Origin: a virus
Virus record (IMG/VR): IMGVR_UViG_3300033146_005954
Span: 1-64,000 of that record
DNA: 64,000 bases
Strand: one strand, 5' to 3'
Part shown: piece by piece, positions 8,109-45,992 of the stretch
How the letters are laid out: each line of letters starts with the position of its first letter
How positions within the stretch are numbered: the first letter of the stretch is position 1
Position numbers and translations under genes: made by a program
Notes under the pieces: model-generated
Told to the model about the DNA's origin: nothing
The model's input: only the letters and a program-made list of their open reading frames with translations
The model's database searches: none

Positions 8109-8969
8109 ATGACAGAACAAGAGAAAAAAGAATTAATCGAAGCGATGAAACATGACAAAGAAGGACAGAAGTCAAATTTTTGGAATATTCCAAAAAAAGA
8201 AGAGGGAACTTTCCCTATTAGATTTTTACCACCTTTAAAAAAATTAGGTGAGAAAACATTCTATTTTAAACATAAGGTTCATTGGATTGCTGGAAGACCG
8301 TATGAGTGTTTAAATCAATCAATGAATGATAAAAATGGAGTATTTCATGAAGCGGAAAATTGTCCTATTTGTAATTTTACAGATAAATTATATAAGACAG
8401 CACAGAAAGGTGATGATGATTTTAAATTAGCTGGATTAATCAGAGGAAAAGAGAGAAATGTAAGTAGAATAGTTGTTAGAAAAAGTGAAGATGAAACTGT
8501 AGCAAGATTTTATGAATATGGACCAAAATTATTTGAGATGTTATATCATATAATTACAGAAACAGATTTTGGAATGATAGTAGATCCTAAAGACGGAAGG
8601 GACTTTAACTTAACAAAATCTGGAACTGGAAGAAATACTAATTATGATACTTCAACCCCTTCAGCAAATTCTAATCCTATATTTACAGATGTTGAAATGT
8701 TGAAGAAGTTATTTACAAATGCTACTGAAATGAAATATACTGACAATATAGAATTTACAAGCTATGATAATTTGAAAAAAGTGCTTGAGTCATTTTTAGG
8801 AGATGAGCCTGAACCTATTTCAAAACCAGCTTCTGCTCCTATTTCAAAACCAGCTTCTGCTCCTATTTCAAAACCAGTTTCTGTTGAAAAAGAAGAAATG
8901 CCAGTTTCTGCTGAAACATCAGAAGAAGATGACGAATTGGATGCTATATTAGGCGAATTTACAAGTTAG
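8109..8969 (+). CDS. 32: T4 gp32-like single-stranded DNA-binding protein
   Basis: 286 aa (T4 gp32 is 301). A basic N terminus is followed by an OB-fold region with a gp32-type zinc site: H58, C67, C85 and C88 (ENCPICNF). FYFKHKVHWI and VRKSEDETVARFYEYGPKLF match the gp32 core. The C-terminal 60 residues contain three copies of PISKPASA and a very acidic end (SEEDDELDAILGEF), the tail that in T4 recruits replication proteins. It coats ssDNA in replication and recombination and heads the gp32-uvsX-gp31-uvsW block. Confidence 0.85.
   Translation: MTEQEKKELIEAMKHDKEGQKSNFWNIPKKEEGTFPIRFLPPLKKLGEKTFYFKHKVHWIAGRPYECLNQSMNDKNGVFHEAENCPICNFTDKLYKTAQKGDDDFKLAGLIRGKERNVSRIVVRKSEDETVARFYEYGPKLFEMLYHIITETDFGMIVDPKDGRDFNLTKSGTGRNTNYDTSTPSANSNPIFTDVEMLKKLFTNATEMKYTDNIEFTSYDNLKKVLESFLGDEPEPISKPASAPISKPASAPISKPVSVEKEEMPVSAETSEEDDELDAILGEFTS
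8814..8885 (+). repeat. 24-bp in-frame repeat in gp32 (three copies)
   Basis: CCTATTTCAAAACCAGCTTC followed by TGCT occurs perfectly at 8814 and 8838 and with changes at 8862. It encodes PISKPASA. It forms a flexible linker before the acidic tail, and its copy number may vary between isolates. Confidence 0.8.
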
Positions 8970-8977
8970 ATAAAATA

Positions 8978-8996
8978 CCCCCCCAACTAAGGGGGG
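8978..8996 (+). terminator. C6/G6 hairpin between gp32 and uvsX
   Basis: CCCCCCC-AACTAA-GGGGGG is a very stable stem in an AT-rich context. It lacks a T run and may attenuate readthrough or protect the abundant gp32 message. Confidence 0.5.
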
Positions 8997-9011
8997 ATAA
9001 TAGGAGAAAAT

Positions 9012-9887
9012 ATGGCAAAGAAAAAAATAGAAAAAGCAGAAGAAACTTCTTTTGAAGATATAGATAAAATAATTTCAAAACAATTTGGGGATTTAATTGA
9101 TTTATCTAAAGTAGATACTTCAGTAGATACTTTTTATGATTGGGGTGTTTATTCTTTAAATTATATTTGTTCAAAGAATTTATTTGGTGGTATTCCAAAA
9201 GGACGTGTAACAGGCATTGAGGGTTTGGCGGGCACGGGAAAGTCTTTATTAACAGCGGTTGCAGCAAAAGATCCAAGAATTGATTATATAATAGTAGTTG
9301 AAACAGAAGGTGGTGGACAAGGCGATGAATTAATGACATTTGCTGGAGTTGATAAAAGAAAAGTTAGAATAATGAAAGCAAATACATTTACAAGTTATAA
9401 AACAAATAAAAAGACTTTAAAAATAGAAGAAATAAAAGATAGTGAAATACCTAAAAAATTAAACACTGATACTTATCTATATACAGAAGGAATTACTTCT
9501 AAAATAAGAAGATTTATACAAGCTATTAATTTTGGAGGAGTTAAACAAAATATATTAATTATTTTAGATAGTTTGGCAAATATTCAATCAGTTAGAGCAC
9601 TTGCTGGTGGTTGTTATATTGGAGATACTAAAATCACAACAAAAAATGGTTTAAAAAGTATAAAAGATATTAAAGAAGGAGATTTTGTTTTAACTCATTT
9701 AGGATCACTCAAAGAAGTTGAAAAAATACATTCCTATGAAAATAAAAATGAAATAATTGAAATCGAAATTGAAGATGAAATAATAAAACTAACGCCTAAT
9801 CATAAATTATTAATTAAAAGGGATGGTGTAAAGAAATGGGAAATGGCAGGGAATGTTTTATTAACAGATGAATTATTTAAGATATAA
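9012..9887 (+). CDS. uvsX: UvsX/RecA-type recombinase, N-terminal part fused to N-half of a split intein
   Basis: 291 aa. Residues 1-200 are the RecA/UvsX core: Walker A GLAGTGKS (71-78) and Walker B ILIILDS (181-187). At C201 (nt 9612) an intein begins: CYIGDTKI (block A), KEGDFVLT, and block B TPNHKLL (261-267). The frame stops after 91 intein residues without endonuclease or C-terminal splicing blocks. Those are in the separate ORF at 10044. UvsX forms filaments on ssDNA for strand exchange. TAGGAGAAAAT precedes the ATG. Confidence 0.85.
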   Translation: MAKKKIEKAEETSFEDIDKIISKQFGDLIDLSKVDTSVDTFYDWGVYSLNYICSKNLFGGIPKGRVTGIEGLAGTGKSLLTAVAAKDPRIDYIIVVETEGGGQGDELMTFAGVDKRKVRIMKANTFTSYKTNKKTLKIEEIKDSEIPKKLNTDTYLYTEGITSKIRRFIQAINFGGVKQNILIILDSLANIQSVRALAGGCYIGDTKITTKNGLKSIKDIKEGDFVLTHLGSLKEVEKIHSYENKNEIIEIEIEDEIIKLTPNHKLLIKRDGVKKWEMAGNVLLTDELFKI

Positions 9888-9888
9888 T

Positions 9889-9987
9889 ATATTTTATATT
9901 GAAGAACTTAATTTATGTATTGAGTATAATGGAGACTATTGGCACAAAAACCCAAGATTTTATAATTATCTGGAAAATGGATGTTGA
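9889..9987 (+). pseudogene. Remnant of an endonuclease gene between the split-intein halves
   Basis: A short frame reads YIEELNLCIEYNGDYWHKNP then RFYNYLENGC and a stop. IEYNGDYWHKNP matches the core of Vsr-like homing endonucleases (E..GD.WH.NP). After a frame change, 9983-10042 continues VDKEFNNVVDKFKKKIGEKI, plausibly the same decayed protein. No intact start or length remains. This is the expected place for the endonuclease in a fractured-gene arrangement. Confidence 0.6.
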
Positions 9988-10043
9988 TAAAGAGTTCAAT
10001 AATGTCGTAGATAAATTTAAGAAAAAAATAGGAGAGAAAATAA

Positions 10044-10910
10044 ATGAATGAATTAAAAAAAGATGATATTTTTTTAGACAATTATATTCCTTTAAAAATA
10101 AAATCTATTAAAAGGAGGAGTGACAATATAGAAAAAGTTTATGATTTGACTGTTAAGGATGATAAAACTTATTGTGTTACAAAAAATAAAATTATTGGAC
10201 ATAATTCTGATATGGGGCTTAGGGGCCAAAATATTAATAGTTTTTTTAAAAACTTTGATAATGCTTTTGAAGAAGCAGGTATGACATTTGTATTTACAAA
10301 TAAATTATATACAAATTTTGATGAATATAATCCATGGGCTTCAGCAGGTGGAGTATCTCCAAGATATAATTCTTCTTTATATGTTAGGTTATCTACTACT
10401 TCTTTAACTGATGATGTATCTGATGGTGATATGAAAGAAGAAAAATTAAAAAGAAAATCAGCTTTAGGAAGTTCATTAAAAACTATAAAAGCAAGAGTTG
10501 AAAAAAGTAGATTTGGGACAGATATGAGAAATATTCCATTTCTTTTAGATTTTATATCTGGACCAGTTAAATTTAGTGGATTATTTACTTTATGTAAAGA
10601 TTTTGGTGTAATAACTTCTCCTTCTAATGGATGGTATGAAATGGATACTGTATTTGAAGGTAAATTTAGAAAAAAAGATTTTATTCCTTTTATAAAAAAG
10701 AATGAAAAAGAATTAATGACTAAAATACAAAAGTTATTAGAGAAAGCTGAAATAAGAATTAAAAAAGAACATCAAAATTTAGAAGTAAATGATATACAAG
10801 AAGCTAATGATGTTGAAGAAGATTTAGAAGACAAAGATAAAGAAAATCCTTTTGGAGAGACAGTATCTGATGATATAATGAAAGAAATGATTAAAGATGT
10901 TGAAGTATAA
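10044..10910 (+). CDS. uvsX: C-half of split intein fused to UvsX C-terminal part
   Basis: 288 aa. Residues 1-54 are intein C-half: block F KVYDLTVKDDKTYCV (31-45) and block G IIGHN (50-54), ending at the splice junction before S55 (nt 10206). Residues 55-288 continue UvsX: SDMGLRGQNINSFFKNFDNA, MTFVFTNKLY, then an acidic C terminus. It has its own Shine-Dalgarno (AATAGGAGAGAAAATAA). Trans-splicing with the ORF at 9012 would give an uninterrupted protein of about 434 residues. Confidence 0.85.
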   Translation: MNELKKDDIFLDNYIPLKIKSIKRRSDNIEKVYDLTVKDDKTYCVTKNKIIGHNSDMGLRGQNINSFFKNFDNAFEEAGMTFVFTNKLYTNFDEYNPWASAGGVSPRYNSSLYVRLSTTSLTDDVSDGDMKEEKLKRKSALGSSLKTIKARVEKSRFGTDMRNIPFLLDFISGPVKFSGLFTLCKDFGVITSPSNGWYEMDTVFEGKFRKKDFIPFIKKNEKELMTKIQKLLEKAEIRIKKEHQNLEVNDIQEANDVEEDLEDKDKENPFGETVSDDIMKEMIKDVEV

Positions 10911-12048: not shown

Positions 12049-13469
12049 AACTATATATAGATGATAGAATAATTTCTATTATTTTTAAAACAAAAGAAAA
12101 TGAAGTAATATTTAAAAATTATTTTACATGGAAAGATGATTCAAAAGCTTTTTTTAGAGGAAAATATGACGTAACTAAAATAAAAAAAGTTTGTTTCATG
12201 AAACATCATAAATCAATGTATTTATTAAAATCAGGATTTCTACAAGAAGTAATGTTTTTAATAAAATCAAATGAAATTAAAGTAACTGAAATAGTTGATA
12301 AAAGAACTAAATTTAATTTCATGAAAAAAGAGTATTCTATTAAATCATTAGAAAAATATTTTCCTTTTGAATATGTAGATCATCAAACGTCTGCTTTAAA
12401 AAAAATTTTAAAAGTTAATAAAGGGATTGCTGTTTTACCAACATCGGCTGGCAAAACTGAAATTTTTTTGGCTTATTTGAAAATAACAAATTTGCCAACT
12501 TTAATAGTAGTGAATAAAGTTTTATTAAGTGAGCAAATATATGAAAGAATTATTAAATATGGAATTAATGATGTTGGTATAAATACCGGTAGTAAAAAAA
12601 GAAATTTAGAGGCAAAAGTAATTGTTTCAACTATTGGAAGTGTTAAAAATTTAAATTTAAGTAAATTTAAATGCCTCATTGGTGATGAAGTTCATAATTT
12701 TTCTTCAAAAACATTCCAAGATTTTTTAGAAAAAGTTTCCTTCCCAATTCAAATAGGATTTTCAGCAACTCCTAATAAAGGGAAACCGTATCAATATTCT
12801 ATAATTAGGCAATTTATGGGCGATGTAATAGCAGAAGTAAAATCAAAAGAATTGATGGATAATAAAGTAATGGCTGAACCGTTTATTTATTTTGTAAAAA
12901 ATAAACTAAATGATGGGTTAGATTATCATTCATCTTATTTAAAAGAAATAATACAAAATAGAGAAAGAAATAATAGTATTGTTAGAATAGTTGAAAATTT
13001 TGATACTCAAATATTAATCTTACTTCAAGATGTTGTTAATGGACAAGGTGAGTATCTAAAAGAAAAAATAGCAGAATTTGGAAAAAAGGTTGAATTTATT
13101 TCAGGAGAAACTAAAGATAGAAATTTTTATATAGAGAACTTTGAAAAAGAAAATATTAATGTTTTAATAGCTACTAATATTTTAAATGAAGGAATTTCAA
13201 TTAATAATATTAATTTATTAATTAATGCAGCAGGAATGAAAAGTTATTCACTTACTGCTCAAAAAATAGGAAGAGGTTTAAGAACAAAAAAGGGAAAAAG
13301 TTCTGTTGCAGTTGTAGATTTTATTGATGAAGGAAATAAATTTTTAGAAAAACATAGTAAGATTAGATATGATATATTCAAAAAATTGGGATTTCATAAT
13401 ATATTAAAATTGAACTTAGAGGAACTTTTGGAATATGACGAGAAAAGTATTATTAAAAAGACTAGATGA
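12045..13469 (+). CDS. uvsW: UvsW-like SF2 recombination helicase with replaced C terminus
   Basis: 474 aa. Helicase motifs in order: PTSAGKTE (132-139), DEVH (214-217), SATP (240-243), ATNILNEGI (376-384) and QKIGRGLR (406-413). VDHQTSALKKIL (111-122) is the Q-motif region. T4 UvsW unwinds branched DNA and turns off origin initiation. After LRT (412-414) the last 60 residues have a divergent second copy encoded at the end of the following endonuclease gene, indicating that insertion displaced the original 3' end. Confidence 0.85.
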   Translation: MKLYIDDRIISIIFKTKENEVIFKNYFTWKDDSKAFFRGKYDVTKIKKVCFMKHHKSMYLLKSGFLQEVMFLIKSNEIKVTEIVDKRTKFNFMKKEYSIKSLEKYFPFEYVDHQTSALKKILKVNKGIAVLPTSAGKTEIFLAYLKITNLPTLIVVNKVLLSEQIYERIIKYGINDVGINTGSKKRNLEAKVIVSTIGSVKNLNLSKFKCLIGDEVHNFSSKTFQDFLEKVSFPIQIGFSATPNKGKPYQYSIIRQFMGDVIAEVKSKELMDNKVMAEPFIYFVKNKLNDGLDYHSSYLKEIIQNRERNNSIVRIVENFDTQILILLQDVVNGQGEYLKEKIAEFGKKVEFISGETKDRNFYIENFEKENINVLIATNILNEGISINNINLLINAAGMKSYSLTAQKIGRGLRTKKGKSSVAVVDFIDEGNKFLEKHSKIRYDIFKKLGFHNILKLNLEELLEYDEKSIIKKTR

Positions 13470-14733
13470 AAAATATAAAGAATATAATTATATTTTAAAA
13501 AGTAAAAAAGATTATTTTACAAAAAAAGAAAGTATAACTTTTTTATGCCCTACTCATGGAGAATTTGAAAAAAAATTACCTTATTTTATTTATGGAAAAA
13601 ATTTTAGTTATTGTCCAAAATGTATTTTTGAAGAAAAATCTCAAAAAATGAGAATGCCACTAGAAGAATATGAAAAAAAATTACACAAAATACATAAAAA
13701 TAGATATAAAGTTTTAGAATATAACGGATTTAGTAAAGAAATTAAAATATTCGATACTGTTAGAGGTGTAAAAATAGTAGAACTTCCATACAATATATTG
13801 AAAAAATACTATAACGGAGAAGACGTTAAAAAAAGTAAATTAGAAAAACTTCAAAAAGATTTTTATGAAAAATATGTTAAGTTAAAAATACCTTATGAAA
13901 TTGTTGATTTAACTCAATATAAAAAAGCATTCTCAATGATAGAATTAAAATGTCCTATTCATGGAATATTTAAAGTAAGAGCAAGTTATATAATTTCTAA
14001 TGGTGGAAACTCTTGCCCTAAATGCTCTTATGACAACTTGAAAACAACTATTACTGAATTTACGAATATTTGTAATAAAATACATAAAAATAAATATGAT
14101 TATAAATTAGTAGAATATGAAGGTAATTTAAAAAAAATTAAAATAATATGTCCTATTCATGGAGTGTTTTTACAGCGACCTAAACAGCATAAAAAAGGGG
14201 AAGGTTGTCCAAAATGTTCTAAAAGTAAAGGAGAAATGAGAGTTTCTGCATTATTAGAGAATAACGGGATTCTATATAACCAACAGCATCATTATAGTGA
14301 TTGTATAAACCCAGAAACAAACCATGTTTTATATTTTGATTTTTATTTGCCTGATTATAATGTATTAATTGAGTTTGATGGGAGACAACACTATGAGCCT
14401 ATAAAGTATTTTGGAGGAAATAAAGAATTTATTAAAAGAAAAAGACTAGATTTGATTAAAGATGAATATTGTGTATTAAATAATATCAAACTAATTAGGA
14501 TTAAATACAATACAGATGTTGAGGCATTGGATATAAAAAAAATATTAAGAACCATGACAGAAGACAACATAATTATAAAAGATAGTGTGGTTGTAATAGA
14601 TTTTTTAGATAATGGAAATAGATTTACTGAAAAACACAGTAAAGAAAGGATGAGAATATATGAGAGTGAGGGGTATACTGATATATCTGTTATGAAAGTA
14701 GAGGAGCTAAAAACTATTGTAAAGATAAAGTAA
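13435..14733 (+). CDS. Zinc-module (DUF723-type) endonuclease inserted into uvsW, carrying the displaced uvsW 3' end
   Basis: 432 aa. Three Cys/His modules, each CP.HG.F followed by CPKC: about 38-59, 180-204 and 240-263 (IICPIHGVFLQRPKQH). A nuclease domain follows, YFDFYLPDYNVLIEFDGRQH, with FD, IE, DG and QH as in Vsr/DUF559-type enzymes, and KLIRIKY. The last 50 residues (SVVVIDFLDNGNRFTEKHSK onward) are not endonuclease but a second copy of the UvsW C terminus (SVAVVDFIDEGNKFLEKHSK). The ORF overlaps uvsW by 35 bases. Confidence 0.8.
   Translation: MTRKVLLKRLDEKYKEYNYILKSKKDYFTKKESITFLCPTHGEFEKKLPYFIYGKNFSYCPKCIFEEKSQKMRMPLEEYEKKLHKIHKNRYKVLEYNGFSKEIKIFDTVRGVKIVELPYNILKKYYNGEDVKKSKLEKLQKDFYEKYVKLKIPYEIVDLTQYKKAFSMIELKCPIHGIFKVRASYIISNGGNSCPKCSYDNLKTTITEFTNICNKIHKNKYDYKLVEYEGNLKKIKIICPIHGVFLQRPKQHKKGEGCPKCSKSKGEMRVSALLENNGILYNQQHHYSDCINPETNHVLYFDFYLPDYNVLIEFDGRQHYEPIKYFGGNKEFIKRKRLDLIKDEYCVLNNIKLIRIKYNTDVEALDIKKILRTMTEDNIIIKDSVVVIDFLDNGNRFTEKHSKERMRIYESEGYTDISVMKVEELKTIVKIK
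14718..14732 (+). promoter_or_regulatory. Late-promoter-like motif
   Basis: TGTAAAGATAAAGTA followed by AAGGAAAATTTATG of the next gene, inside the last codons of the endonuclease/uvsW tail. Confidence 0.6.
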
Positions 14734-17824: not shown

Positions 17825-17844
17825 AAAGCCCCGAAAGGGGCTTT
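17825..17844. terminator. Bidirectional terminator after hsp20
   Basis: AAAGCCCC-GAAA-GGGGCTTT with an A-run upstream, between hsp20 and the convergent minus-strand endonuclease gene. Confidence 0.85.
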
Positions 17845-19411
17845 AAACATTATATATAAACTTATCACTTCCACAATCCCATATCCTATCTATTCCATTA
17901 ATTAACATGTTTTGATATTCAGTTATATTTATATCAAAATAATCTAACTTTTTAGGCAATTCTTGCTTTCTATATCCAAATCTATGTTTCCTTATACCAT
18001 TAACTACATAGTAATAATTAACATTAGTTGAATCAACTTTTTTCATTCCTATATTTGTATAAAATGTTCCTTTATTCCATCTCCTATCACTAAATGTAAA
18101 TATAGTATCTACTTTATAATTTTTTATAAAATGCTGAAACATTTTACTCCCTAATCCCATTATTAAATACCCTGCTTTAACTGAAAAACGTGATAACTCA
18201 TATTCACCCTCTGTTTTTTTCTTTCTCCCTAACGCAACTCTAGGTTTTACAAATGTCATTACTCCAACTAATTCATTTAAATAAAAAGCTCCTAACTTAA
18301 TAGATGCTCTATCAACTCCTTGTATGTGAGTATTTAATAAAAATTCATTCTTTGTAGAAGCTTCTATTTCTTTAATTATAGTTTTTCTACCACCTATTTT
18401 AACATCATATATTCCAAGAAAATGTTTTATTCTATTTTTTACTATTAATTCTTTAAATATCCACTCATCTTCAAATATTTGAATTAATCTTATTCCTTTC
18501 TCTTTATATGATAACATCTTATTTAAATGAAATCTCTTATCACCTATTTGTTGCTCACTATGATAATGTAAATTATATATAGTAAATGCTATAGAATGCT
18601 TTTCTATATATATTATATCATCTTCTACTCTATATTCTGCTATGGATGATATGAAATCTATTAATTCACTTTTTAAATCTCTATTTGGAGAGTTCGCAAT
18701 AGAAGAAGCAAGTGATCTATTCGGTATGAATATATTTTTAGCTCCATTATTTTCAATATTTAATTTTCTAACATGATCTATCACTTCTTTATTTACAACA
18801 GGTTTTAAACATTCTTTACATCCACTCCCTCGTAAAAAATTCTTTGGAGCTACTGAAAAATCACCATGTTCTTTACATGTTATTATTAATTTCGTGTTAG
18901 TGTTTTTATATACTGCTTTAGTATATAAATACTTTGTCCCAAATTTAGCAATACCTTTTTTAATAAATTCATCAATTCCTAAACTTCTTTCTTTAGAAGC
19001 TTTCTCTTTACTACAAATAGGACACCCTGTTTTCCTACTTAAAAAAGCCTGTGGAGTTTTAGAAAATACACCATGTATTTTACATATTATTTTAACTTTT
19101 GTTTTATAATCTATATAATTTACTAATCTATAATCATATAAATCCCCATAAATTGCTTTCGCTTTCTCTATAAATATTTCATTTGTTAATCTCATAAATT
19201 TATGATACATTAAATAATAAATTTTGTCAATAGTTATTGTATTAAAGTATAATGTCTTATAACAATATTTTTCTTCAACACATTCTATTAAATATAATTT
19301 TTTCAATTTTTCTCTCAATGCTTTATCCTCTATTAATACTTCACAATCAACTGTAGTATCTAAAGCATCCATTAAAGCATAAAATTCACCTTTATCCAAT
19401 TTTTCCCCCAA
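17843..19411 (-). CDS. Composite endonuclease with two zinc modules and a C-terminal GNAT-like domain
   Basis: 522 aa. After about 70 residues of unrelated N terminus come two DUF723-type modules: NEIFIEKAKAIYGDLYDYRL with CKIHGVF and CPIC, then CKEHGDF with CKEC. A nuclease-like middle follows (AFTIYNLHYHSEQ, LIQIFEDEWIFK), then a C-terminal domain GVMTFVKPR, YELSRFSVKAG, FTFSDRRWNKGTFYTNIGMK common in phage homing endonucleases. The first TTG (19411) has no Shine-Dalgarno. TTG at 19399, behind GGGGGAAAAA, is a better start. It runs against the flanking plus-strand genes, which supports insertion. Confidence 0.7.
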   Translation of the reverse strand: MGEKLDKGEFYALMDALDTTVDCEVLIEDKALREKLKKLYLIECVEEKYCYKTLYFNTITIDKIYYLMYHKFMRLTNEIFIEKAKAIYGDLYDYRLVNYIDYKTKVKIICKIHGVFSKTPQAFLSRKTGCPICSKEKASKERSLGIDEFIKKGIAKFGTKYLYTKAVYKNTNTKLIITCKEHGDFSVAPKNFLRGSGCKECLKPVVNKEVIDHVRKLNIENNGAKNIFIPNRSLASSIANSPNRDLKSELIDFISSIAEYRVEDDIIYIEKHSIAFTIYNLHYHSEQQIGDKRFHLNKMLSYKEKGIRLIQIFEDEWIFKELIVKNRIKHFLGIYDVKIGGRKTIIKEIEASTKNEFLLNTHIQGVDRASIKLGAFYLNELVGVMTFVKPRVALGRKKKTEGEYELSRFSVKAGYLIMGLGSKMFQHFIKNYKVDTIFTFSDRRWNKGTFYTNIGMKKVDSTNVNYYYVVNGIRKHRFGYRKQELPKKLDYFDINITEYQNMLINGIDRIWDCGSDKFIYNV

Positions 19412-20580: not shown

Positions 20581-21681
20581 ATGCGAAGAAAAACAACTGA
20601 AGAGTTTATAGAAGAAAGCAAAAAAATACATGGAAATATTTATGATTATTCTAAAGTAAATTATATAAATGCTTATACAAAAGTAGAAATAATATGCAAA
20701 ATACATGGTTCATTTTTTCAAAGACCTGATAAGCACTTAATAGGACAAAGATGCCCTATTTGTAGTAAAGAAAAAACATCTTTAGGGAAAGAAGGTTTTA
20801 CAAAATTAGCAAAAAATATTCATGGCGATAAATATGATTATTCTAAAGTAAATTATATAAATAATAAAACAAAAGTAGAAATAATATGCAAAATACATGG
20901 TAATTTTTGGCAAAGAGTGGGGGATCATTTAAATAACCACGGATGTCCTTTATGTGGAGATTTAGTTATAAAAGAGAAACTATCAGATTCATCCGAAGAT
21001 TTTATAATTAAGGCAAAAAAAATACATGGTGATAGATATGATTATTCTAAAGTAAATTATTACAATAACACAACCAAAGTTGAAATAATATGCAAAACAC
21101 ATGGTAATTTTTGGCAAATCCCATCAGATCATTTAAGACATCATGGATGTAAAAAATGTTATTATGCAAAAATTTTAAGCAATACAGAAGATTTTATCAA
21201 TAAAGCTAATATAGTTCATAATAATTTATATGATTATTCTAAAGTAAATTATATAAATAATATAACAAAAATTGAAATAATATGTAAAATACATGGTAGT
21301 TTTTGGCAAATACCTTATATTCATTTACAAAATCATGGATGCCCTGTTTGTAATAGTAGTAAAGGAGAAATGCTAATAGCTAATTATTTAGAAAAACATA
21401 AAATAAGTTTTATTCCTCAAAAGAGATTTGATGACTGTAAAAATGTTAACCCATTACCTTTTGACTTTTACTTACCTAATTATAATATATTAATTGAATT
21501 TGACGGAAAACAGCATTTTGAAGTAAATGAGTTTTTTGGTGGAAAAGAAAATTTCATTAAACAACAAATAAATGATAATATAAAAACAAATTATAGTAAA
21601 GAAAATAATATATCTTTAATTAGAATAAGGTATGATGAAATAGATTATGTTGATAAAATATTGACAAAATATATTATTTAA
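20581..21681 (+). CDS. Endonuclease with four DUF723-type zinc modules
   Basis: 366 aa. Four repeats of about 70 residues, each reading (F/I)I..(A/S)KKIHG..YDYSKVNY followed by IICK.HG.F(F/W)Q...HL...C..C. The C-terminal nuclease domain has LPFDFYLPNYNILIEFDGKQ then HF, and LIRIRYDE, a Vsr/DUF559-like arrangement. A freestanding homing-type DNA endonuclease is inferred, with the zinc modules reading DNA. It is very similar to the next gene, pointing to duplication or repeated invasion between tail tube and gp47. Confidence 0.75.
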   Translation: MRRKTTEEFIEESKKIHGNIYDYSKVNYINAYTKVEIICKIHGSFFQRPDKHLIGQRCPICSKEKTSLGKEGFTKLAKNIHGDKYDYSKVNYINNKTKVEIICKIHGNFWQRVGDHLNNHGCPLCGDLVIKEKLSDSSEDFIIKAKKIHGDRYDYSKVNYYNNTTKVEIICKTHGNFWQIPSDHLRHHGCKKCYYAKILSNTEDFINKANIVHNNLYDYSKVNYINNITKIEIICKIHGSFWQIPYIHLQNHGCPVCNSSKGEMLIANYLEKHKISFIPQKRFDDCKNVNPLPFDFYLPNYNILIEFDGKQHFEVNEFFGGKENFIKQQINDNIKTNYSKENNISLIRIRYDEIDYVDKILTKYII

Positions 21682-21694: not shown

Positions 21695-22585
21695 ATGAGA
21701 AGAAAAACAACTGAAGAGTTTATAGAAGAAAGTAAAAAAATACATGGTGATAGATATGATTATTCTAAAGTAAATTATATAAATAATATAACAAAAATTG
21801 AAATAATATGTAAAAAACATGGAATATTTTTTCAAACACCTTTAGGACACTTAAAGACAAAAGGATGTCCTATTTGTAGTAAAGAAAAAACATCTTTAGG
21901 AAAAGAAGGTTTTATAAAATTAGCAAAAAAAATACATGGGGAAAAATATGATTATTCTAAAGTAAAATATGTTAATAATAAAACAAAAGTAGAAATAATA
22001 TGTAAAATACATGGAAGTTTTTGGCAAATACCTAACAGGCATTTACAAGGAAATGGGTGTAGTGTTTGTGCTAATAACTATAAATCAAATACAGAAGAAT
22101 TTATAAAAAAGGCTAATATAGTTCATAATAATTTATATGATTATAAATTAGTAAATTATATAAATGCTAAAACTAAAGTGGAAATAATATGTAAAAAACA
22201 TGGGATATTTTATCAAATACCAAATAGTCATTTAAATGGTAGAGGATGTCCTGTTTGTAATAATAGTAAAGGAGAAATGTTAATAGCTAATTATTTAGAA
22301 AAACATAAAATAAGTTTTATTCCTCAAAAAACATTTGATGATTGTAGAAATAAAAGAGTTTTACCATTTGATTTTTACTTACCTAATTATAATATATTAA
22401 TCGAATTTGATGGAAAACAACATTTTATAAATGATAATTGGGGAAAAGATAATTATAAAAAAACTGTGTTTCATGATAATATAAAAACAAACTATAGTAT
22501 AGAAAAAGGTATTAAATTAATTAGAATAAGATATGATGAAATAAATTACATAGGAGAGATTATTGAAAATTTTGTTAACAGCTGA
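21695..22585 (+). CDS. Endonuclease with three DUF723-type zinc modules
   Basis: 296 aa. Three zinc modules (for example IICKKHGIFFQTPLGHLKTK then GCPIC) and the same nuclease domain as its neighbour (FDFYLPNYNILIEFDGKQHF, KLIRIRYDE). The first 30 codons are almost identical to those of the gene at 20581, and one internal module has been lost or gained between them. Its 3' end overlaps the gp47 start by 23 bases. Confidence 0.75.
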   Translation: MRRKTTEEFIEESKKIHGDRYDYSKVNYINNITKIEIICKKHGIFFQTPLGHLKTKGCPICSKEKTSLGKEGFIKLAKKIHGEKYDYSKVKYVNNKTKVEIICKIHGSFWQIPNRHLQGNGCSVCANNYKSNTEEFIKKANIVHNNLYDYKLVNYINAKTKVEIICKKHGIFYQIPNSHLNGRGCPVCNNSKGEMLIANYLEKHKISFIPQKTFDDCRNKRVLPFDFYLPNYNILIEFDGKQHFINDNWGKDNYKKTVFHDNIKTNYSIEKGIKLIRIRYDEINYIGEIIENFVNS

Positions 22586-27455: not shown

Positions 27456-27484
27456 TTGACAAAATACATTTTTTATTGTATAAT
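27456..27484 (+). promoter_or_regulatory. dnaE early promoter
   Basis: TTGACA (27456-27461), 17 bases, TATAAT (27479-27484), then AAAAAAGGAATATATATG at 27504. Confidence 0.85.
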
Positions 27485-27503
27485 ATATAAAAAAGGAATA
27501 TAT

Positions 27504-29891
27504 ATGACAGAATTACATTTACATACTAACATAGGAAGTAGGTTAGATGCTATGGCTTCTTCATTTGATTATGCTAAATTAGCTAAAAAAAATGGACATA
27601 AGTCATTAGCTATTACAGATCATGGAAGAATGACAGGTATTTTAAATCATCAAAAAGCTTGTTTAGAAAATGATATAAAACCTATTTTCGGAGTGGAGGC
27701 TTATTTAACAGATGAACTAACTTCTTTAAATGAAAAAAACAAAAGAATTAGAACAAAAACAAATCATATTATTTTATTAGCCAAGAATGAAATAGGTTAT
27801 AAAAATTTATTATATTTAAACTACATATCCTATAAAGATGTAGAACATTATTATTATAATAATAGAATATTAGAAAAAGAATTATTTGATAATAGTGAAG
27901 GTATAATAGTTGGAACTGCTTGTTTAGCTTCTAAATGGAATAGACTAATTATGGATGGTAAAATTAAAGAAGCTGAAAAGTTATTTGTTAAGTATAGAGA
28001 CCATTTTAAAGATAATTTTTATACTGAAATCCAAATAAATGAAATAACTAATACTATTGATAAAGCTGAATTCGGGCAGAAAACTGTAAATGAAGTTATG
28101 ATGTCTTTTGCTGAAAAATATGATGTCCCAATTTATATAGGTGGAGATGTTCATTATCTAAATCCAGGAGATGATTTACTTCAATCTGTTTCTATTGCTA
28201 TTAGAAATAAAGAAACTATGGATAATTTATCATGGGAATTAGAAAGTAGACATATGTATTATAAAAATGAAATAACTGTTTTGAAATTAAATAAAGAATT
28301 TGGCTATAATTATGATGAAAGAAAATTGAAAAACTATTTTAATAATTCTGATTTAATAGCTGAAAAATGTAATTTCTTATTACCTGAAAGAAAACAAATG
28401 TTTTTACCTAAATTATATGATGATGATGATAAAGTATTAATCACTAAAGCAAAAAATGCTTTAAATAAAATGTTCGATGAAATACCTGTAGAATATTCTA
28501 ATAGATTGAATTTAGAATTAGAACTTATTATTAGAAAAGGCTTTAGTTCTTATCTATTAGTTTTAGAAGATATTTTTCAATTTATAAAAAAAGAAAATAT
28601 ATGGGTTGGAGCGGGTCGTGGCTGTTATACAGAAAATGCTATGGTTTTTACAAACAATGGGTTTAAAAAAATTAAGGATGTAAAAATAGGTGATACTGTG
28701 ATAAATGAAAAAGGGGAGGAAGATACTGTAATAAATACTTTTATTTATGACATAAATGAAGAGCTTTATGATATAAGCTATGTTCATTCTTCTAATACTT
28801 TTTCACCTAAACAGTGCACTGGAGATCATAAACAATTAATAAGAAGAAATGAAAAGAACATCTGGGTTGAAACAAAAAATATAAATCCAGAAACAGACTT
28901 AATTTGTTTACCTAAAATAAAAGAAAAAAAAATAAATGAAATAAAAGAATTTGATTTGTTAGATTATAATATATTTAACTATGAATATGATGAAAATTAT
29001 ATATATGAAAAAGTAAATGCAAATAAAAACTCTTTTGTTATTAAGAAAATAAAAAGAAAAGTAAAAGTAGATAAAAACTTTTTCAGGATGATCGGATTGC
29101 TTGCTGGAGATGGTTGGGTTCCATATTATGATAGTAATTCTTCAAAAACAATTACATTAGCTATAAATAACAGCAATAAGAAAGATAAATGGAATAGAAA
29201 AGAATTTGAAATTTTTTATGATAAATTTTTTGACACAAGAGAGTTTTTATATGAAAATATTTCAAAAACAAAGAAACTAACTCAATTATATATAAATTCA
29301 AAGATTATATCTAATTTCGCTAAAGAAGAAATGATTTTTTACGATTTAAATAAACAAAAATATATTGATGAAAAATGGGTAAATCAAAGTAATAAAAATA
29401 TTAGAAATATATGGAAAGGACTGTTGTATTCTGATGGATATTGGAGAAGACAAAATAGAAGTTTGAAAATAAATTTTGATAATACTTCATTAAAATTAAT
29501 TACTAATTTTTGTGAAATTTCTAACAGACTCGGCCTTATTCCATCTATTAGTCATAAAGATAAATATTTATGTAATGAATCATACAAAGTAAGAACAGAT
29601 CTATTTGATCGTTCAAACCTTCAAGATGAAGATTATTATTATATGGATATAAACAAAATAAAAAAGCTAAAAAAAAGAAAATGTAAGGTTTATGATTTAA
29701 GTATAAAAAATCATCAATCCTTTATGATCGATAATATGATAACTCATAACTCAGGGGGCGGAAGCATCGTTCTATATTTATTGAATATTACCAAAATTGA
29801 TCCAATAAAATATAATTTATTATTTGAACGTTTTTTATCAAATGAAAGATCTATTGATGTAGTTTATGATTACTTTGGAGAAGCTAAATGA
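27504..29891 (+). CDS. dnaE: DNA polymerase III alpha (DnaE), N-terminal piece: PHP domain and palm start, with intein
   Basis: 795 aa from the ATG at 27504. The PHP domain has ELHLHTNIGS, AITDHGRMTG and GGDVHYLNP, so metal-binding residues are kept and proofreading is possible. The palm begins GFSSYLLVLEDI...VGAGRG. An intein interrupts between GRG and SGGG (28623-29750). After it come SIVLYLLNITKIDPIKYNLL and FERFLSNER, classical DnaE. The frame then ends (YFGEAK) before the catalytic aspartates, which are on the next ORF (ATGA overlap). Confidence 0.88.
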   Translation: MTELHLHTNIGSRLDAMASSFDYAKLAKKNGHKSLAITDHGRMTGILNHQKACLENDIKPIFGVEAYLTDELTSLNEKNKRIRTKTNHIILLAKNEIGYKNLLYLNYISYKDVEHYYYNNRILEKELFDNSEGIIVGTACLASKWNRLIMDGKIKEAEKLFVKYRDHFKDNFYTEIQINEITNTIDKAEFGQKTVNEVMMSFAEKYDVPIYIGGDVHYLNPGDDLLQSVSIAIRNKETMDNLSWELESRHMYYKNEITVLKLNKEFGYNYDERKLKNYFNNSDLIAEKCNFLLPERKQMFLPKLYDDDDKVLITKAKNALNKMFDEIPVEYSNRLNLELELIIRKGFSSYLLVLEDIFQFIKKENIWVGAGRGCYTENAMVFTNNGFKKIKDVKIGDTVINEKGEEDTVINTFIYDINEELYDISYVHSSNTFSPKQCTGDHKQLIRRNEKNIWVETKNINPETDLICLPKIKEKKINEIKEFDLLDYNIFNYEYDENYIYEKVNANKNSFVIKKIKRKVKVDKNFFRMIGLLAGDGWVPYYDSNSSKTITLAINNSNKKDKWNRKEFEIFYDKFFDTREFLYENISKTKKLTQLYINSKIISNFAKEEMIFYDLNKQKYIDEKWVNQSNKNIRNIWKGLLYSDGYWRRQNRSLKINFDNTSLKLITNFCEISNRLGLIPSISHKDKYLCNESYKVRTDLFDRSNLQDEDYYYMDINKIKKLKKRKCKVYDLSIKNHQSFMIDNMITHNSGGGSIVLYLLNITKIDPIKYNLLFERFLSNERSIDVVYDYFGEAK
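28623..29750 (+). other. Intein with LAGLIDADG-type endonuclease domain in DnaE
   Basis: 376 aa, from Cys of CYTENAMVFTNNGFKKI (block A) to NMITHN before Ser (blocks F/G: KVYDLSIKNHQSFMIDNMIT). CTGDHKQLI is block B. FFRMIGLLAGDGWVP and IWKGLLYSDGYW are the two endonuclease motifs. It sits at the conserved GRG/SGGGS site of the DnaE palm, where loss of splicing would inactivate the polymerase. Cys1, terminal Asn and Ser+1 are all present, so splicing should be functional. Confidence 0.88.
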
Positions 29892-30754
29892 AATATTTAA
29901 AAGAAATGTGCGAGAAAAGTGAAAGATTTAAAACACTTTCTGTAGAAAATATGAAAAAATATAAAAAAGAAATTATTGTAGCTAAACGATTTTATAATAA
30001 TGGTAGAAATCTATTTAATGAATTAAGAGAAAGTAAGAATTTGAAAACTCAATATGTTATTCCTTATTTACTAAATTTAACTAATTTAATAACAGATGAA
30101 AAAATGGAAATGGTTCAAGTAAAAGCCGGAGCTTCAGGGGGAATAGATGTAGATGTGGATGTTCAACCGTCTGCTCGTGAGAGGATCTATATATATTTAA
30201 AAAACAAATATGGAGAGGATAAAGTATTTCATATAATAACATTTAGTAAATTAAAATTAGCATCTGCTACAAAAGATATAATGAGAGTATTTAAAATAGG
30301 TGATTTCAAAACAAATAATGAATTTACAAAATGTTTAGATGGTGATTTAACATTTGAAGAAAATATACAATTATTAAAAGCAGAACATCATAAACAATAT
30401 AAAATGTATTTGGATAATAAAGAAGTATTTGATATAATTCCAAAAATGTTAAATATACCTCGTGGAGCTGGAAAACATGCTGGAGGAATAGCAATATTAG
30501 ATAGGCCAATTTATGACTTAATTCCAGTTGAGAGAATTAATGGTGATTTAGTGACTGCCTACCAAGAGAACGGATCACAGACTGATCTCGATGAAGCCGG
30601 AATCGTTAAGTATGATGTGCTTGGAATTACGATATTAGATATAATTGAAAAAGCATATGATTTAATAGATGAGAAATTATATTTAATAGTAGAAGATGGA
30701 ATAGAAAAAATAGTTTCAGAAAGTTATTTAGATGAGGAATTGAAATTGTTATGA
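29888..30754 (+). CDS. dnaE: DNA polymerase III alpha, middle piece with catalytic aspartates
   Basis: 288 aa. About 110 helical residues precede GGIDVDVDVQ, the counterpart of DnaE PDIDIDF with catalytic Asp residues. Then come IYIYLKNKYGEDKVFHIITF, SATKDIMRVFK, RGAGKHAGGIAI and AGIVKYDVLGITILDII, carrying the third catalytic Asp. It stops shortly after, without fingers. It overlaps the N piece by ATGA. Together with the pieces at 27504 and 31635 it accounts for a whole polymerase; assembly of separate chains is inferred. Confidence 0.85.
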   Translation: MKYLKEMCEKSERFKTLSVENMKKYKKEIIVAKRFYNNGRNLFNELRESKNLKTQYVIPYLLNLTNLITDEKMEMVQVKAGASGGIDVDVDVQPSARERIYIYLKNKYGEDKVFHIITFSKLKLASATKDIMRVFKIGDFKTNNEFTKCLDGDLTFEENIQLLKAEHHKQYKMYLDNKEVFDIIPKMLNIPRGAGKHAGGIAILDRPIYDLIPVERINGDLVTAYQENGSQTDLDEAGIVKYDVLGITILDIIEKAYDLIDEKLYLIVEDGIEKIVSESYLDEELKLL

Positions 30755-30830
30755 AATTGTTGAATGAAAAAAAATAATATATTTTTAATTAAAAAAGAAG
30801 TTAGATAACATATATAAAATAGGAGAATAA

Positions 30831-30986
30831 ATGAGTGATGATTTAGTTTTTAGAAAAGTATTATATTATTTTTTAAAGAGTTTTTTAGAGAATAATGATT
30901 TAGAATATATGACCTATACAGAAGATAAAGAATATAAACTTTGGATAGAAGACGAAAATATAATAATAGATAGTGAGGAGATATAA
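30831..30986 (+). CDS. Small acidic protein (51 aa)
   Basis: 51 aa, MSDDLVFRKVLYYFLKSFLE to IIIDSEEI. Shine-Dalgarno TAGGAGAATAA. It overlaps the next start by one base. No family is recognised. It lies between dnaE pieces. Confidence 0.5.
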   Translation: MSDDLVFRKVLYYFLKSFLENNDLEYMTYTEDKEYKLWIEDENIIIDSEEI

Positions 30987-31186
30987 TGGCATATACAAAT
31001 AGCGAAACAAGTAAATTATTAAATAAGAGAATAGTTGAATTTGAAGATTCAATTAATTTAATGGAAAAAGGGATGAATAAGAAAGGTGATGAATTTGATA
31101 AAAGTTTAATAGCGTTTCAATTTGGGAGAATGCAATCAATCTATATACAAGTAGCAGAACTATTAAAGAACTTAAAAGTGATATAA
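30986..31186 (+). CDS. Small helical hypothetical protein (66 aa)
   Basis: 66 aa, MAYTNSETSKLLNKRIVEFE ... QVAELLKNLKVI, all-helical. GAGGAGATATA precedes it. It is coupled to the 51-aa ORF. Not recognised. Confidence 0.5.
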   Translation: MAYTNSETSKLLNKRIVEFEDSINLMEKGMNKKGDEFDKSLIAFQFGRMQSIYIQVAELLKNLKVI

Positions 31187-31191
31187 AACAC

Positions 31192-31220
31192 TTGACAAAT
31201 AATATATAATATGTTATAAT
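31192..31220 (+). promoter_or_regulatory. Promoter of the sigma-factor-like gene
   Basis: TTGACA (31192-31197), 17 bases, TATAAT (31215-31220), a perfect consensus, 17 bases before the ATG. Confidence 0.85.
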
Positions 31221-31237
31221 ATATTCATGGAGCAACT

Positions 31238-31642
31238 ATGGATATAGACAAAGACAAATTAAAAGAAGAATTTTTAAAAAAGAATTATGATTATTTTTTT
31301 AAAGAAGCGAGAGTTATTACAAATTTTTTATTAATTCAAAGTTTTAAAATTTACAATCAAGATATTCGAGAAGATATGATTCAAGAATGTTTAGAGAATT
31401 TATGGAAAAAAGTTGTAAATAACAAAGTTAAATCGGAATATAATTTATTTGCTTTTATTTGGAAAAACAGTCAATTTAGAATATTAGAAATTTTCAGAAA
31501 AGAAAAAAACAGAAACAGGATAGCACCTTTTACCTCTTATGATGAATTAGATGATATAAAAATATCTAATTATATTGACTCAAGAAAAGAAATAGGATAT
31601 AAATATGTTGATACTCAATTAAAGGAGTTATGGATTGCTTAA
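31238..31642 (+). CDS. 55: gp55-like late sigma factor
   Basis: 134 aa (T4 gp55 is 185). The centre reads IREDMIQECLENLWKKVVNN, then YNLFAFIWKNSQFRILEIFR then KEKNRNRIAPF, matching sigma-70 region 2 as in T4 gp55 (EMIADGIEA...N.[20 protein letters not shown]). Region 4 is absent, as in gp55, which needs a clamp and co-activator. It would direct host RNA polymerase to late promoters; the TGTAAAGRTAAATA motif is the likely target. Other sigma-70-fold proteins (ECF type) cannot be excluded. Confidence 0.65.
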   Translation: MDIDKDKLKEEFLKKNYDYFFKEARVITNFLLIQSFKIYNQDIREDMIQECLENLWKKVVNNKVKSEYNLFAFIWKNSQFRILEIFRKEKNRNRIAPFTSYDELDDIKISNYIDSRKEIGYKYVDTQLKELWIA

Positions 31643-33143
31643 AGTAATAAGAGAAGTTAAAAAAAGTGAATTAAAAGATTTTTTATATAATATGGATTTA
31701 ACTGATGAAAATTTATATAAAGAAGCTAATTCAGATACTTCATTAGGGATTTTCCAATTTACAGGGAAAACAGCTAATAGATTATTAAAAGAAGTTAATC
31801 CCTCCTCATTTGAGGAATTAGTAGCTATAAATGCTTTATCAAGACCTGGAAGTATTGAAATGTTGCCACAATATTTAGAGGGGATGGAAGGAAAAGAAAG
31901 TCATTACCCGAGAGAATTAGATCCTATATTAAAATCTACAAATAATACTATTTTATTTCAAGAACAAATAATGGCTATTTTTAATAAAATAGGGAACTTT
32001 ACTTTAGAGGAAAGTAATAGTATCCGTGGTTTAATGAAGGTATTAGGAAAAAAAGAAAAAAAGCAAGAAGATTTAGATGCTTGGGATAGAGCAGTTAAAA
32101 GATTTATAAAAGGGGCTGAAAATAATAATATAAAACCTTTTATGGCTAAAAAACTGGCAGACGATATGGTGGCCTTTTCTGCTTATAGTTTCAATCGTTC
32201 ACATGCAGTAGCATATACATTAGTAGCTACAATGACATTATATCTTTCATATTATTTTAGGAAATATTTTTATTCAGCTATTTTAGATTATGAAATAGAT
32301 AAAGATAATGAAATTTTAACAGTTTTTAATAAAGTAAAATTAAATAATTATGATATAATGCCTCCTGATATAAATGAAAGTTATACAAATATGTATCCTA
32401 TTGATAATACAATATTATATGGGTTATATAATATAAAATTTGTTGGAGAGAAACCTTGTGCGAAAATAATAGAAAATAGACCATATAATAGTTTATTTGA
32501 TTTTATAATGAAAACAAGAAGTAGAGAGGTAAACTCAAAAACAATTAAAGCTTTAATATCAGTTGGAGCATTTGATAAATTTGAAGAAAATAGAAAAAAA
32601 TTATTATATATATTTGAAAGATTTTGGAAAGAAAAGAAATCAATTAAGATAGTTGAGAAATTAGAATATATATATAATAATATAGAAAAAGAAAGCGAAA
32701 GAATGATTGGATTAAATACTACTTTAAGTGATTTAAGAAAATATGAGAAGGAATTTTTTGGATTTAATTTTTTCACATCAGTTTTTTCACCTGAATTAAC
32801 AAAAGCATTTATAGAAATGAGTAAAAAACATTTAATATATTTTGATATATCAGATGTTAGTAGAATATCTAAAAAATTACCTGTTAACATTTCATCAATT
32901 AGAACTTTAATAGATAGAAATGGGAAAGAAATGGCATTTTTAGAAATAGAAGATTTAACAAATACTAAAATAACAATTCCTGTTTTTGGTAGTTATTGGA
33001 TTTATATTAAAGATATGATACAAGAAGATGAAATATATTTATTAAATGTTTATTTGGATGATAAAGATAATATATTATTTGGAGAGAAGAGTTGGGGACT
33101 ATCTGAAGGTAAAATAATAAGAATGGTTAAGAAGGTTGGGTAG
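31635..33143 (+). CDS. dnaE: DNA polymerase III alpha, C-terminal piece (fingers, thumb-distal, OB-like)
   Basis: 502 aa, TTG start 8 bases after AAAGGAG, overlapping the sigma stop. It begins in the canonical DnaE segment DTSLGIFQFTG, followed by SFEELVAINALSRPG, LFQEQIMAI, KVLGKK and AYSFNRSHAVAYTLVATMT, then the helix-hairpin-helix region (ALISVGAFDKF) and an OB-like C terminus. No beta-clamp-binding motif was confirmed. The break between this and the middle piece has no intein blocks, so these are separate chains. Confidence 0.85.
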   Translation: MLKVIREVKKSELKDFLYNMDLTDENLYKEANSDTSLGIFQFTGKTANRLLKEVNPSSFEELVAINALSRPGSIEMLPQYLEGMEGKESHYPRELDPILKSTNNTILFQEQIMAIFNKIGNFTLEESNSIRGLMKVLGKKEKKQEDLDAWDRAVKRFIKGAENNNIKPFMAKKLADDMVAFSAYSFNRSHAVAYTLVATMTLYLSYYFRKYFYSAILDYEIDKDNEILTVFNKVKLNNYDIMPPDINESYTNMYPIDNTILYGLYNIKFVGEKPCAKIIENRPYNSLFDFIMKTRSREVNSKTIKALISVGAFDKFEENRKKLLYIFERFWKEKKSIKIVEKLEYIYNNIEKESERMIGLNTTLSDLRKYEKEFFGFNFFTSVFSPELTKAFIEMSKKHLIYFDISDVSRISKKLPVNISSIRTLIDRNGKEMAFLEIEDLTNTKITIPVFGSYWIYIKDMIQEDEIYLLNVYLDDKDNILFGEKSWGLSEGKIIRMVKKVG

Positions 33144-38411: not shown

Positions 38412-39809
<1,398 letters not shown>

Positions 39810-45087: not shown

Positions 45088-45992
45088 TGAAACGAGAGGA
45101 GTTTATATCTAAAGCAAATAAAATATATAATAATAAATATGATTATTCTAAAGTAAAATATATAAACAATAAAACAAAAGTTGAAATAATATGTAAAATA
45201 CATGGTTCTTTCTTTAAAGAGCCAAGTAGTTTTTTAAAAGGAGTTGAATGTAATATTTGTAAAAAAAATAAAATAAGAGAAAATGAAAAAGAAAAATTTA
45301 TTTTAAAAGCAAATAAAATATATAATAATAAATATGATTATTCTAAAGTAAAATATATAAACAATAAAACAAAAGTAGAAATAATATGTAAAACACATGG
45401 ATCTTTTTTTCAAAAACCAAATGATCATTTGATGAAACATGAGTGCCCATCTTGCTCTTTAGAAAAAAACAAAGACACTTTTAAATTAGGTAAAAATAAA
45501 TTTATATACAAGTCAAACAAAATACATAGAAATAAATATGATTATTCAAAAGTGGTATATGTTAATAGCAGGACAGCTATTAATATAATCTGTCCTATTC
45601 ATGGGTCTTTTTTTCAGAAACCTCATGAACATTTAAGAGGTCATGGATGTAGGTTGTGCAATACACATTCAAAAAATGAAGAAAATATTTATTACTTATT
45701 AAAAGACAATAATATTAATTTTGATTCTGAAAAAACATTTGATGATTGTATAGATAAGAGAAAATTGCCTTTTGATTTTTATTTACCAGAACATAATACT
45801 TTAATTGAATATGATGGGAAGCAACACTATGAATCAATAGATTTTTTTGGAGGAGAAAAAGCATTTATTAAAAGACAATTACATGATAAAATGAAGAATG
45901 AATATGCTAAAAATAAAGGAATTAGTTTAATTAGAATTCCTTATTGGAAGGATGAAATAAAAGAAGTAAGTAGTTTCTTAAAAAATCATTGA
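45087..45992 (+). CDS. Endonuclease with three DUF723-type zinc modules
   Basis: 301 aa. Three modules (FI.KANKIYNNKYDYSKVKY ... IICKIHGSFF, with C..C after each). The nuclease domain is LPFDFYLPEHNTLIEYDGKQ then HYES, and SLIRIPYWKDE. The first two modules are nearly identical at DNA level (45108-45200 and 45309-45400), a recent internal duplication. It begins directly at the helicase stop (TAATGA) with no promoter of its own and is followed by a promoter. An insertion after the helicase gene is inferred. Confidence 0.75.
   Translation: MKREEFISKANKIYNNKYDYSKVKYINNKTKVEIICKIHGSFFKEPSSFLKGVECNICKKNKIRENEKEKFILKANKIYNNKYDYSKVKYINNKTKVEIICKTHGSFFQKPNDHLMKHECPSCSLEKNKDTFKLGKNKFIYKSNKIHRNKYDYSKVVYVNSRTAINIICPIHGSFFQKPHEHLRGHGCRLCNTHSKNEENIYYLLKDNNINFDSEKTFDDCIDKRKLPFDFYLPEHNTLIEYDGKQHYESIDFFGGEKAFIKRQLHDKMKNEYAKNKGISLIRIPYWKDEIKEVSSFLKNH

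What the first reader, a model, noticed from the sequence alone, without database searches (positions are those of the whole stretch)
9012..10910. uvsX is a fractured gene with a split intein and a decayed endonuclease between the halves
The N-half ends 91 residues into an intein (C201, blocks A and B). The C-half begins with 54 residues carrying blocks F and G and HN-S. Each half has its own Shine-Dalgarno. The 156 bases between encode only a remnant IEYNGDYWHKNP of a Vsr-like homing endonuclease. This is the arrangement described for phage/metagenomic fractured genes with split inteins, here in a recombinase, with the endonuclease already dying. Such inteins are often fast.
Basis: partly seen in the sequence, partly recalled or inferred. 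Interest (0 to 1): 0.8.

Follow-up and report, generated by a model that had tools for sequence, protein, structure and literature searches.

The report
Split-intein phage recombinase, endonuclease lost
In this phage the DNA-repair gene uvsX is cut into two genes whose proteins each carry half of a self-splicing element (intein) that should stitch them back into one recombinase, and the selfish DNA-cutting gene that once sat between them survives only as a dead remnant whose last bases still start translation of the second half.

Summary
uvsX is two ORFs (9012-9887 and 10044-10910) ending and beginning in halves of a class 1 intein (91 + 54 residues) with every splicing residue present. The joined 434-residue product aligns without a gap to about 20 uninterrupted UvsX relatives, and the break lies in the RecA/UvsX L1 DNA-binding loop. 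Two metagenomic phages have the same split intein at the same site: L142 with an intact 335-residue endonuclease, and L155 with only about its last 26 codons. In all three, the C-half's Shine-Dalgarno lies inside the endonuclease's last codons; both decayed alleles kept just that end. Window and L155 inteins are 51% identical while their exteins are 29% identical, and intein and extein trees disagree, so the element has probably moved between distant phages. Best reading: a fractured gene past the homing stage, in which the endonuclease is dead and trans-splicing is retained. Splicing is inferred, not shown. Fractured genes are known (Dassa 2009, not readable here); this is an endonuclease-less variant with a rare decay series.

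The parts
9002..9006 (+). Shine-Dalgarno AGGAG of the uvsX N-half
   Evidence: sequence
9012..9887 (+). uvsX N-half gene (N-extein 200 aa + intein N-part 91 aa)
   Evidence: (phrog_97 E 5.8e-13)
9612..9884 (+). Intein N-part: Cys1 (9612-9614), block B TPNH (9792-9803)
   Evidence: Pfam Hint_2 1e-5 (below cut-off)
9895..9963 (+). Endonuclease remnant 1, YIEELNLCIEYNGDYWHKNPRFY (equivalent to residues ~250-273 of the L142 enzyme); frame differs from both uvsX halves
   Evidence: HMM 4e-14, biased because the motif was used to fetch the family; E 5e-6, unbiased query
9959..10051 (+). Endonuclease remnant 2, FIIIWKMDVDKEFNNVVDKFKKKIGEKINE* (equivalent to residues ~309-335); third frame; stop overlaps the C-half start
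   Evidence: same junction in L142 and L155
10030..10034 (+). Shine-Dalgarno AGGAG of the uvsX C-half, lying inside endonuclease remnant 2
   Evidence: sequence
10044..10910 (+). uvsX C-half gene (intein C-part 54 aa + C-extein 234 aa)
   Evidence: (phrog_97 E 1.3e-15)
10044..10205 (+). Intein C-part: block F VYDLTV (10137-10154), block G ..IIGHN (His-Asn 10200-10205); +1 residue Ser (10206-10208)
   Evidence: Pfam Intein_splicing 7e-4 (below cut-off)

Best explanation
uvsX of this phage is a fractured gene carrying a naturally split class 1 intein. The two halves are translated separately from one region, each with its own ribosome-binding site. The intein halves associate and fold into a Hint domain. 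Cys1 and Ser+1 act as nucleophiles and Asn54 cyclises, joining ...VRALAGG to SDMG... into a 434-residue UvsX with an intact L1 DNA-binding loop. The break came from an ancestral intein whose Vsr-like homing endonuclease was a separate gene between the halves. That gene spread the element between phages by cutting intein-free uvsX (homing). In this phage it has been deleted to two out-of-frame scraps. The split persists because loss of the endonuclease does not rejoin the halves, and because the 3' end of the endonuclease gene contains the Shine-Dalgarno of the C-half and so cannot be lost. Shown: anatomy, intact catalytic residues, Hint-type fold prediction, fit of the joined product, homologous alleles with an intact and a nearly absent endonuclease, the shared gene junction, and the intein/extein mismatch. 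Inferred: actual splicing, past homing, and selection on the retained 3' end.
For: Anatomy and motifs. The spliced sequence aligns without a gap across the junction to intein-free relatives, e.g. VRALAGGSDMGLRGQ versus L007 VRQLAGGYDMGMTGQ. The site maps to the RecA L1 region just before (H/D)MG. Intein profile against the PDB: best hit is the gp41-1 split intein 6qaz, E 2e-20. AlphaFold of the read-through intein gives a Hint-like fold; 43 Foldseek hits at E<=1e-3, and those listed are inteins or relatives. Same-site alleles: L142 with intact endonuclease, ORF 1851-2858, and L155 with gap relic IIIWEKDYTESPKKIVRQLLRSINDD*, E 5e-7. In all three the C-half ATG overlaps the endonuclease end (INE*/INDD*) and its AGGAG or GGAGG lies in the endonuclease's last codons. 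Window/L155: intein 51%, extein 29%; window/L142: 53% and 51%. Extein tree puts L155 outside a 100/99 clade holding 20 intein-free relatives, while in the intein tree window pairs with L155 at 91/84.
Against: No expression or splicing data. Only three alleles were found at this site, and grouping their inteins as one clade has moderate support (75/89). Remnant 2 is weakly similar on its own; its assignment leans on the shared junction and the L155 relic. Read-through model confidence is moderate (mean pLDDT 61, meaningless linker included).
Confidence: 0.9

Rival explanations
1. The halves are made but no longer splice; they work by non-covalent association (as described for split NrdA in phage Aeh1), or uvsX is dead.
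For: No splicing data exist. Function of a phage protein as two separate peptides after endonuclease insertion is reported for a ribonucleotide reductase (PMC10448857).
Against: All catalytic residues are kept in three alleles whose inteins are only about 50% identical, while exteins fall to 29%. Non-splicing halves would leave 91 and 54 foreign residues inside the L1 DNA-binding loop. Conserved UvsX positions are intact in both halves.
Confidence: 0.06
2. Assembly error, frameshift or metagenomic chimera; the true gene has one continuous intein ORF.
For: The record is a single metagenome-derived contig.
Against: The same split at the same residue, with the same endonuclease-stop/C-half-start overlap, occurs in two contigs from other metagenomes (L142, L155). 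The gap has stops in all three forward frames. Each half has its own Shine-Dalgarno.
Confidence: 0.02
3. The gap is not an endonuclease remnant but a short regulatory RNA or random spacer.
For: Remnant 2 alone is only 8.6 bits.
Against: Remnant 1 matches an independently found endonuclease at 63%, E 5e-6. Remnant 2 lies at the right distance and end, and L155 keeps the same end at E 5e-7. The gap folds no better than shuffles (z 0.18). No Rfam match at the gathering threshold.
Confidence: 0.03
4. The three split inteins descend vertically from one ancient allele, with no lateral movement, and the intein-free relatives lost it.
For: Window and L142 exteins group weakly together (84/72).
Against: It needs repeated precise losses among 20 intein-free relatives, and an intein more conserved than its extein in the L155 comparison only (51 v 29%), although intein and extein are equal for L142 (53 v 51%).
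Confidence: 0.12

Closest known systems
Fractured genes with split inteins and Vsr-like homing endonucleases (Dassa et al. 2009, doi 10.1093/nar/gkp095; not readable here, recalled from its abstract)
   Same: Phage DNA-metabolism gene broken by a split intein; Vsr-like endonuclease family between the halves (intact in L142, relic in window and L155).
   Different: The endonuclease is dead here; the broken gene is uvsX at the L1 loop. Whether uvsX is among the eight gene types of that paper could not be checked.
gp41-1 and NrdJ-1 split inteins (PDB 6qaz, 8ubs)
   Same: Class 1 split inteins with Cys1 and similar split point; gp41-1 is the best PDB sequence match of the intein profile (2e-20).
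   Different: About 25% identity; the C-part here is 54 aa versus 37-40, with an extra N-terminal segment conserved in the three uvsX alleles.
AceL NrdHF fractured gene (PMC7891396)
   Same: Metagenomic phage gene, fractured, IntN 98 aa and IntC 48 aa, endonuclease in between.
   Different: Class 3 intein with a GIY-YIG endonuclease still present; here class 1 and a dead Vsr-like enzyme.
I-Bth0305I (EDxHD/Vsr-like homing endonuclease, PDB 3r3p)
   Same: Predicted catalytic fold of the L142 endonuclease matches Vsr and I-Bth0305I best, weakly.
   Different: The motif here is IEYNGDYWHxNP; no sequence-level PDB match.
Homing cycle, decay phase (PMC3229294)
   Same: Endonuclease decays after fixation and the self-splicing element stays.
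   Different: In that model decay leads to a contiguous mini-intein and then precise loss; here it ends in a permanently split intein.

Membership tests
Fractured gene (Dassa-type) | Conserved DNA-metabolism enzyme gene broken into two ORFs | tested here: met
Fractured gene (Dassa-type) | Split intein at the break, halves on facing ends | tested here: met
Fractured gene (Dassa-type) | Free-standing endonuclease gene between the halves | tested here: not met
   Only two out-of-frame relics remain in the window; met in the sister allele L142. The window is filed as an endonuclease-less derivative.
Fractured gene (Dassa-type) | Endonuclease of the Vsr-like family | tested here: inconclusive
   Foldseek of the L142 model: 1vsr E 0.014 prob 0.94, 1cw0 0.11, 3r3p 0.18; Pfam MTES_1575 weak in homologues; DUF7487 only in L142 itself
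Class 1 split intein | Cys1, TxxH (block B), block F Asp, His-Asn (block G), Cys/Ser/Thr +1 | tested here: met
   conserved in L142 and L155
Class 1 split intein | Hint fold | tested here: met
   AlphaFold and Foldseek, N-part and most of the C-part at pLDDT ~58-87
Class 1 split intein | Trans-splicing activity | not testable with these tools
   needs co-expression
UvsX/RecA recombinase | Walker A and B, L1 loop, C-terminal UvsX domain in the joined product | tested here: met
   (T4_UVSX_C 5e-4, below cut-off)

The most novel reading that the evidence does not exclude
A one-way ratchet that makes split inteins permanent. A homing endonuclease gene settles between intein halves and its 3' end supplies the ribosome-binding site of the second half. 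Once the endonuclease decays, everything but that 3' end can be deleted (two cases here, window and L155), yet the halves can no longer rejoin without an exact in-frame fusion, so the host gene stays split and dependent on trans-splicing. The three uvsX alleles would be an intact-to-relic-to-trace series at a single intein site, plausibly the route by which endonuclease-free split inteins arise.
Probability: 0.4. Interest if true: 0.65.

Novelty: new variant of a known kind. Interest (0 to 1): 0.52.

Why it matters
It turns a single oddity into a three-stage series at one insertion site (intact, remnant, last codons only). That gives direct comparative evidence for how endonuclease-free split inteins form and why they stay split. 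It also supplies three naturally split class 1 inteins with Ser+1, from one site, as candidates for protein-ligation tools.

Tried and rejected
DNA-level search of annotated phages found nothing. Cultured phages have no allele at this site; the tblastn hits are UvsX matches ending at the extein, or Lak phages split at another site. The first viral scan with the C-half alone found nothing. The genome-contig scan found no relative. A structured RNA or intron in the gap was rejected (the one sub-threshold PsrR1 match on the minus strand at 8973-9051 is taken as chance). A block-B pattern scan found no further alleles beyond L142 and L155. The idea that the C-half start duplicates the N-half end (NELKKDDIF v NVLLTDELF) was considered: the extension is conserved in the three alleles but low-confidence in the model, so no claim is made. 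Dassa 2009 is not held, and no held paper pairs UvsX with split intein.

Full report
What is there. The window is 64 kb of a 67.9-kb IMG/VR virus record, GC about 24%. Downstream of a gp32-like ssb gene (8109-8969, Pfam gp32 6e-15), uvsX appears as two ORFs, 9012-9887 (291 aa) and 10044-10910 (288 aa), 156 bases apart. Both match the UvsX family phrog_97 (5.8e-13 and 1.3e-15). The first ends with 91 residues that start at Cys201 and contain TPNH; the second starts with 54 residues that contain VYDLTV and end IIGHN, followed by Ser. Each ORF has an AGGAG ahead of its ATG.

The joined protein fits. Removing 91 + 54 residues gives 434 residues that align without a gap at the joint to uninterrupted UvsX proteins of related viral contigs (up to 55-56% identical). 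The joint, VRALAGG/SDMGLRGQ, sits where L007 reads VRQLAGGYDMGMTGQ. A profile of these proteins maps the joint to the L1 region of RecA, just before its HMG.

The intein. Pfam Hint/intein models match weakly in each half. A profile of the intein halves finds gp41-1 (6qaz) as best PDB sequence match, E 2e-20. An AlphaFold model of the region read through the gap stops gives a Hint-like fold with an unstructured linker (mean pLDDT 61; N-part blocks about 74-87), and Foldseek returns inteins and their relatives (43 hits at E<=1e-3). All class 1 splicing residues are present.

The gap. A pattern for IEY(N/D)GDYWH brought in 80 listed viral loci, most with one endonuclease family. In L034, L073, L075, L082, L090 and L096 it lies between split-intein halves of DNA polymerase, in L054 of a clamp-loader-like ATPase, and in L088 ahead of a DnaE intein C-half (gene names read from the sequences by eye). 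A profile of this family finds two pieces in the window gap: residues around the motif, and the C-terminus in another frame (the first is biased because the motif was used to fetch the family). The second piece is matched by 2 of 2000 dinucleotide shuffles.

The decisive comparators. A profile of the UvsX relatives returned L142: same split intein, same site, halves 54% and 49% identical to the window's, with an intact 335-aa endonuclease between them. Used as an unbiased query, this enzyme hits one place in the window record, 9892-9963, 63% identity, E 5e-6. A profile of the C-halves returned L155, a 189-kb contig with the same split intein at the same site and a gap of about 90 bases. That gap encodes only the endonuclease C-terminus, IIIWEKDYTESPKKIVRQLLRSINDD, E 5e-7 in six frames. 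In all three alleles the C-half ATG overlaps the endonuclease's last codons (AAT GAA TGA, AAT GAG TGA, AAT GAT GAT TAA), and the C-half's Shine-Dalgarno lies inside them. This conserved junction makes the assignment of the second remnant firm and argues against assembly error.

History. Window and L142 are 51% identical in exteins and 53% in inteins; window and L155 are 29% and 51%. In the extein tree L155 lies outside a 100/99 clade that holds window, L142 and 20 relatives with no intein at this site. In the intein tree window pairs with L155 at 91/84, and the three form one group at 75/89. Lateral movement, presumably by homing before the endonuclease decayed, is the simplest reading. The endonuclease has decayed differently in the window and in L155, and in each the last codons with the C-half's ribosome-binding site stayed.

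Control element. In L142 the endonuclease start is preceded by a 17-bp hairpin that sequesters its AAGGAG (-25.9 kcal/mol, z -7.9). The window has lost it.

Endonuclease type. The modelled C-terminal domain of the L142 enzyme (residues ~212-335, pLDDT ~57-91) matches Vsr (1vsr, 1cw0) and I-Bth0305I (3r3p) best, with weak E-values 0.014-0.18; there is no sequence-level PDB match. Vsr-like is therefore likely, not proven.

Known and new. Fractured genes with split inteins and Vsr-like endonucleases are a published class (Dassa 2009; not held; recalled from its abstract). The homing cycle predicts decay of the endonuclease after fixation (PMC3229294). No held paper mentions UvsX together with a split intein. 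What appears new is the endonuclease-less state at this uvsX site, the three-stage series, and the capture of the endonuclease's 3' end as the ribosome-binding site of the second half. Because the free-standing endonuclease, a defining feature of fractured genes, is not met in the window, it is filed as a derived variant.

Limits. Trans-splicing, its speed, and selection on the retained 3' end were not tested. Three alleles are few.

Noticed in passing
window 28623-29750: DnaE/PolC-type polymerase gene (27456-29891) carries a contiguous intein with a LAGLIDADG domain (GAGRG|C ... THN|SGGG); Pfam Intein_splicing 2e-13.
   Followed up: partly
window 27456-33143: The same polymerase is spread over three ORFs (27456-29891, 29888-30754, 31635-33143) with extra sequence at both breaks and a 134-aa ORF in the second; no split intein or Rfam intron seen at these breaks.
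   Followed up: partly
window 13435-14733: A homing endonuclease ORF overlapping the end of the UvsW-like helicase ends in a copy of the helicase C-terminus, 58% identical over 38 aa to the L002 helicase: insertion seems to have displaced the original 3' end.
   Followed up: partly
window 20581-21681, 21695-22585, 45087-45992, 17843-19411: Several further zinc-finger/CapR plus IEFDGKQH-type endonuclease-like ORFs; the phage is rich in homing endonucleases.
   Followed up: no
window 53266-54372 and 38427-39578: Two adenylosuccinate synthetase genes; the divergent one at 53266 best fits phrog_1211, annotated as a 2-amino-type synthetase, though NCBIfam PurZ is far below cut-off. A modified-purine genome is possible.
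   Followed up: partly
L132 3184-3858; L135 2149-3009: Contiguous inteins at a different uvsX site, the Walker A loop (GLSG|C ... HN|TGKS), one of them with an HNH-like endonuclease segment.
   Followed up: partly
L150 1278-2381; L019 5592-7427 (Prevotella phage Lak-B2): uvsX fractured by split inteins at yet another site (GG|C ... HN|TGIYYS or MG|C ... HN|SGIVYN), with HNH-like (L150) or other (Lak, TAG-recoded) endonuclease-like ORFs between.
   Followed up: partly
L006 6750-7745: UvsW-like helicase with a contiguous LAGLIDADG-type intein at its Walker A motif.
   Followed up: no
L142 1798-1870: 17-bp hairpin hiding the endonuclease's ribosome-binding site, z -7.9.
   Followed up: yes
window 8978-8996: C-run/G-run inverted repeat between ssb and uvsX just ahead of the uvsX ribosome-binding site, a possible control hairpin.
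   Followed up: no
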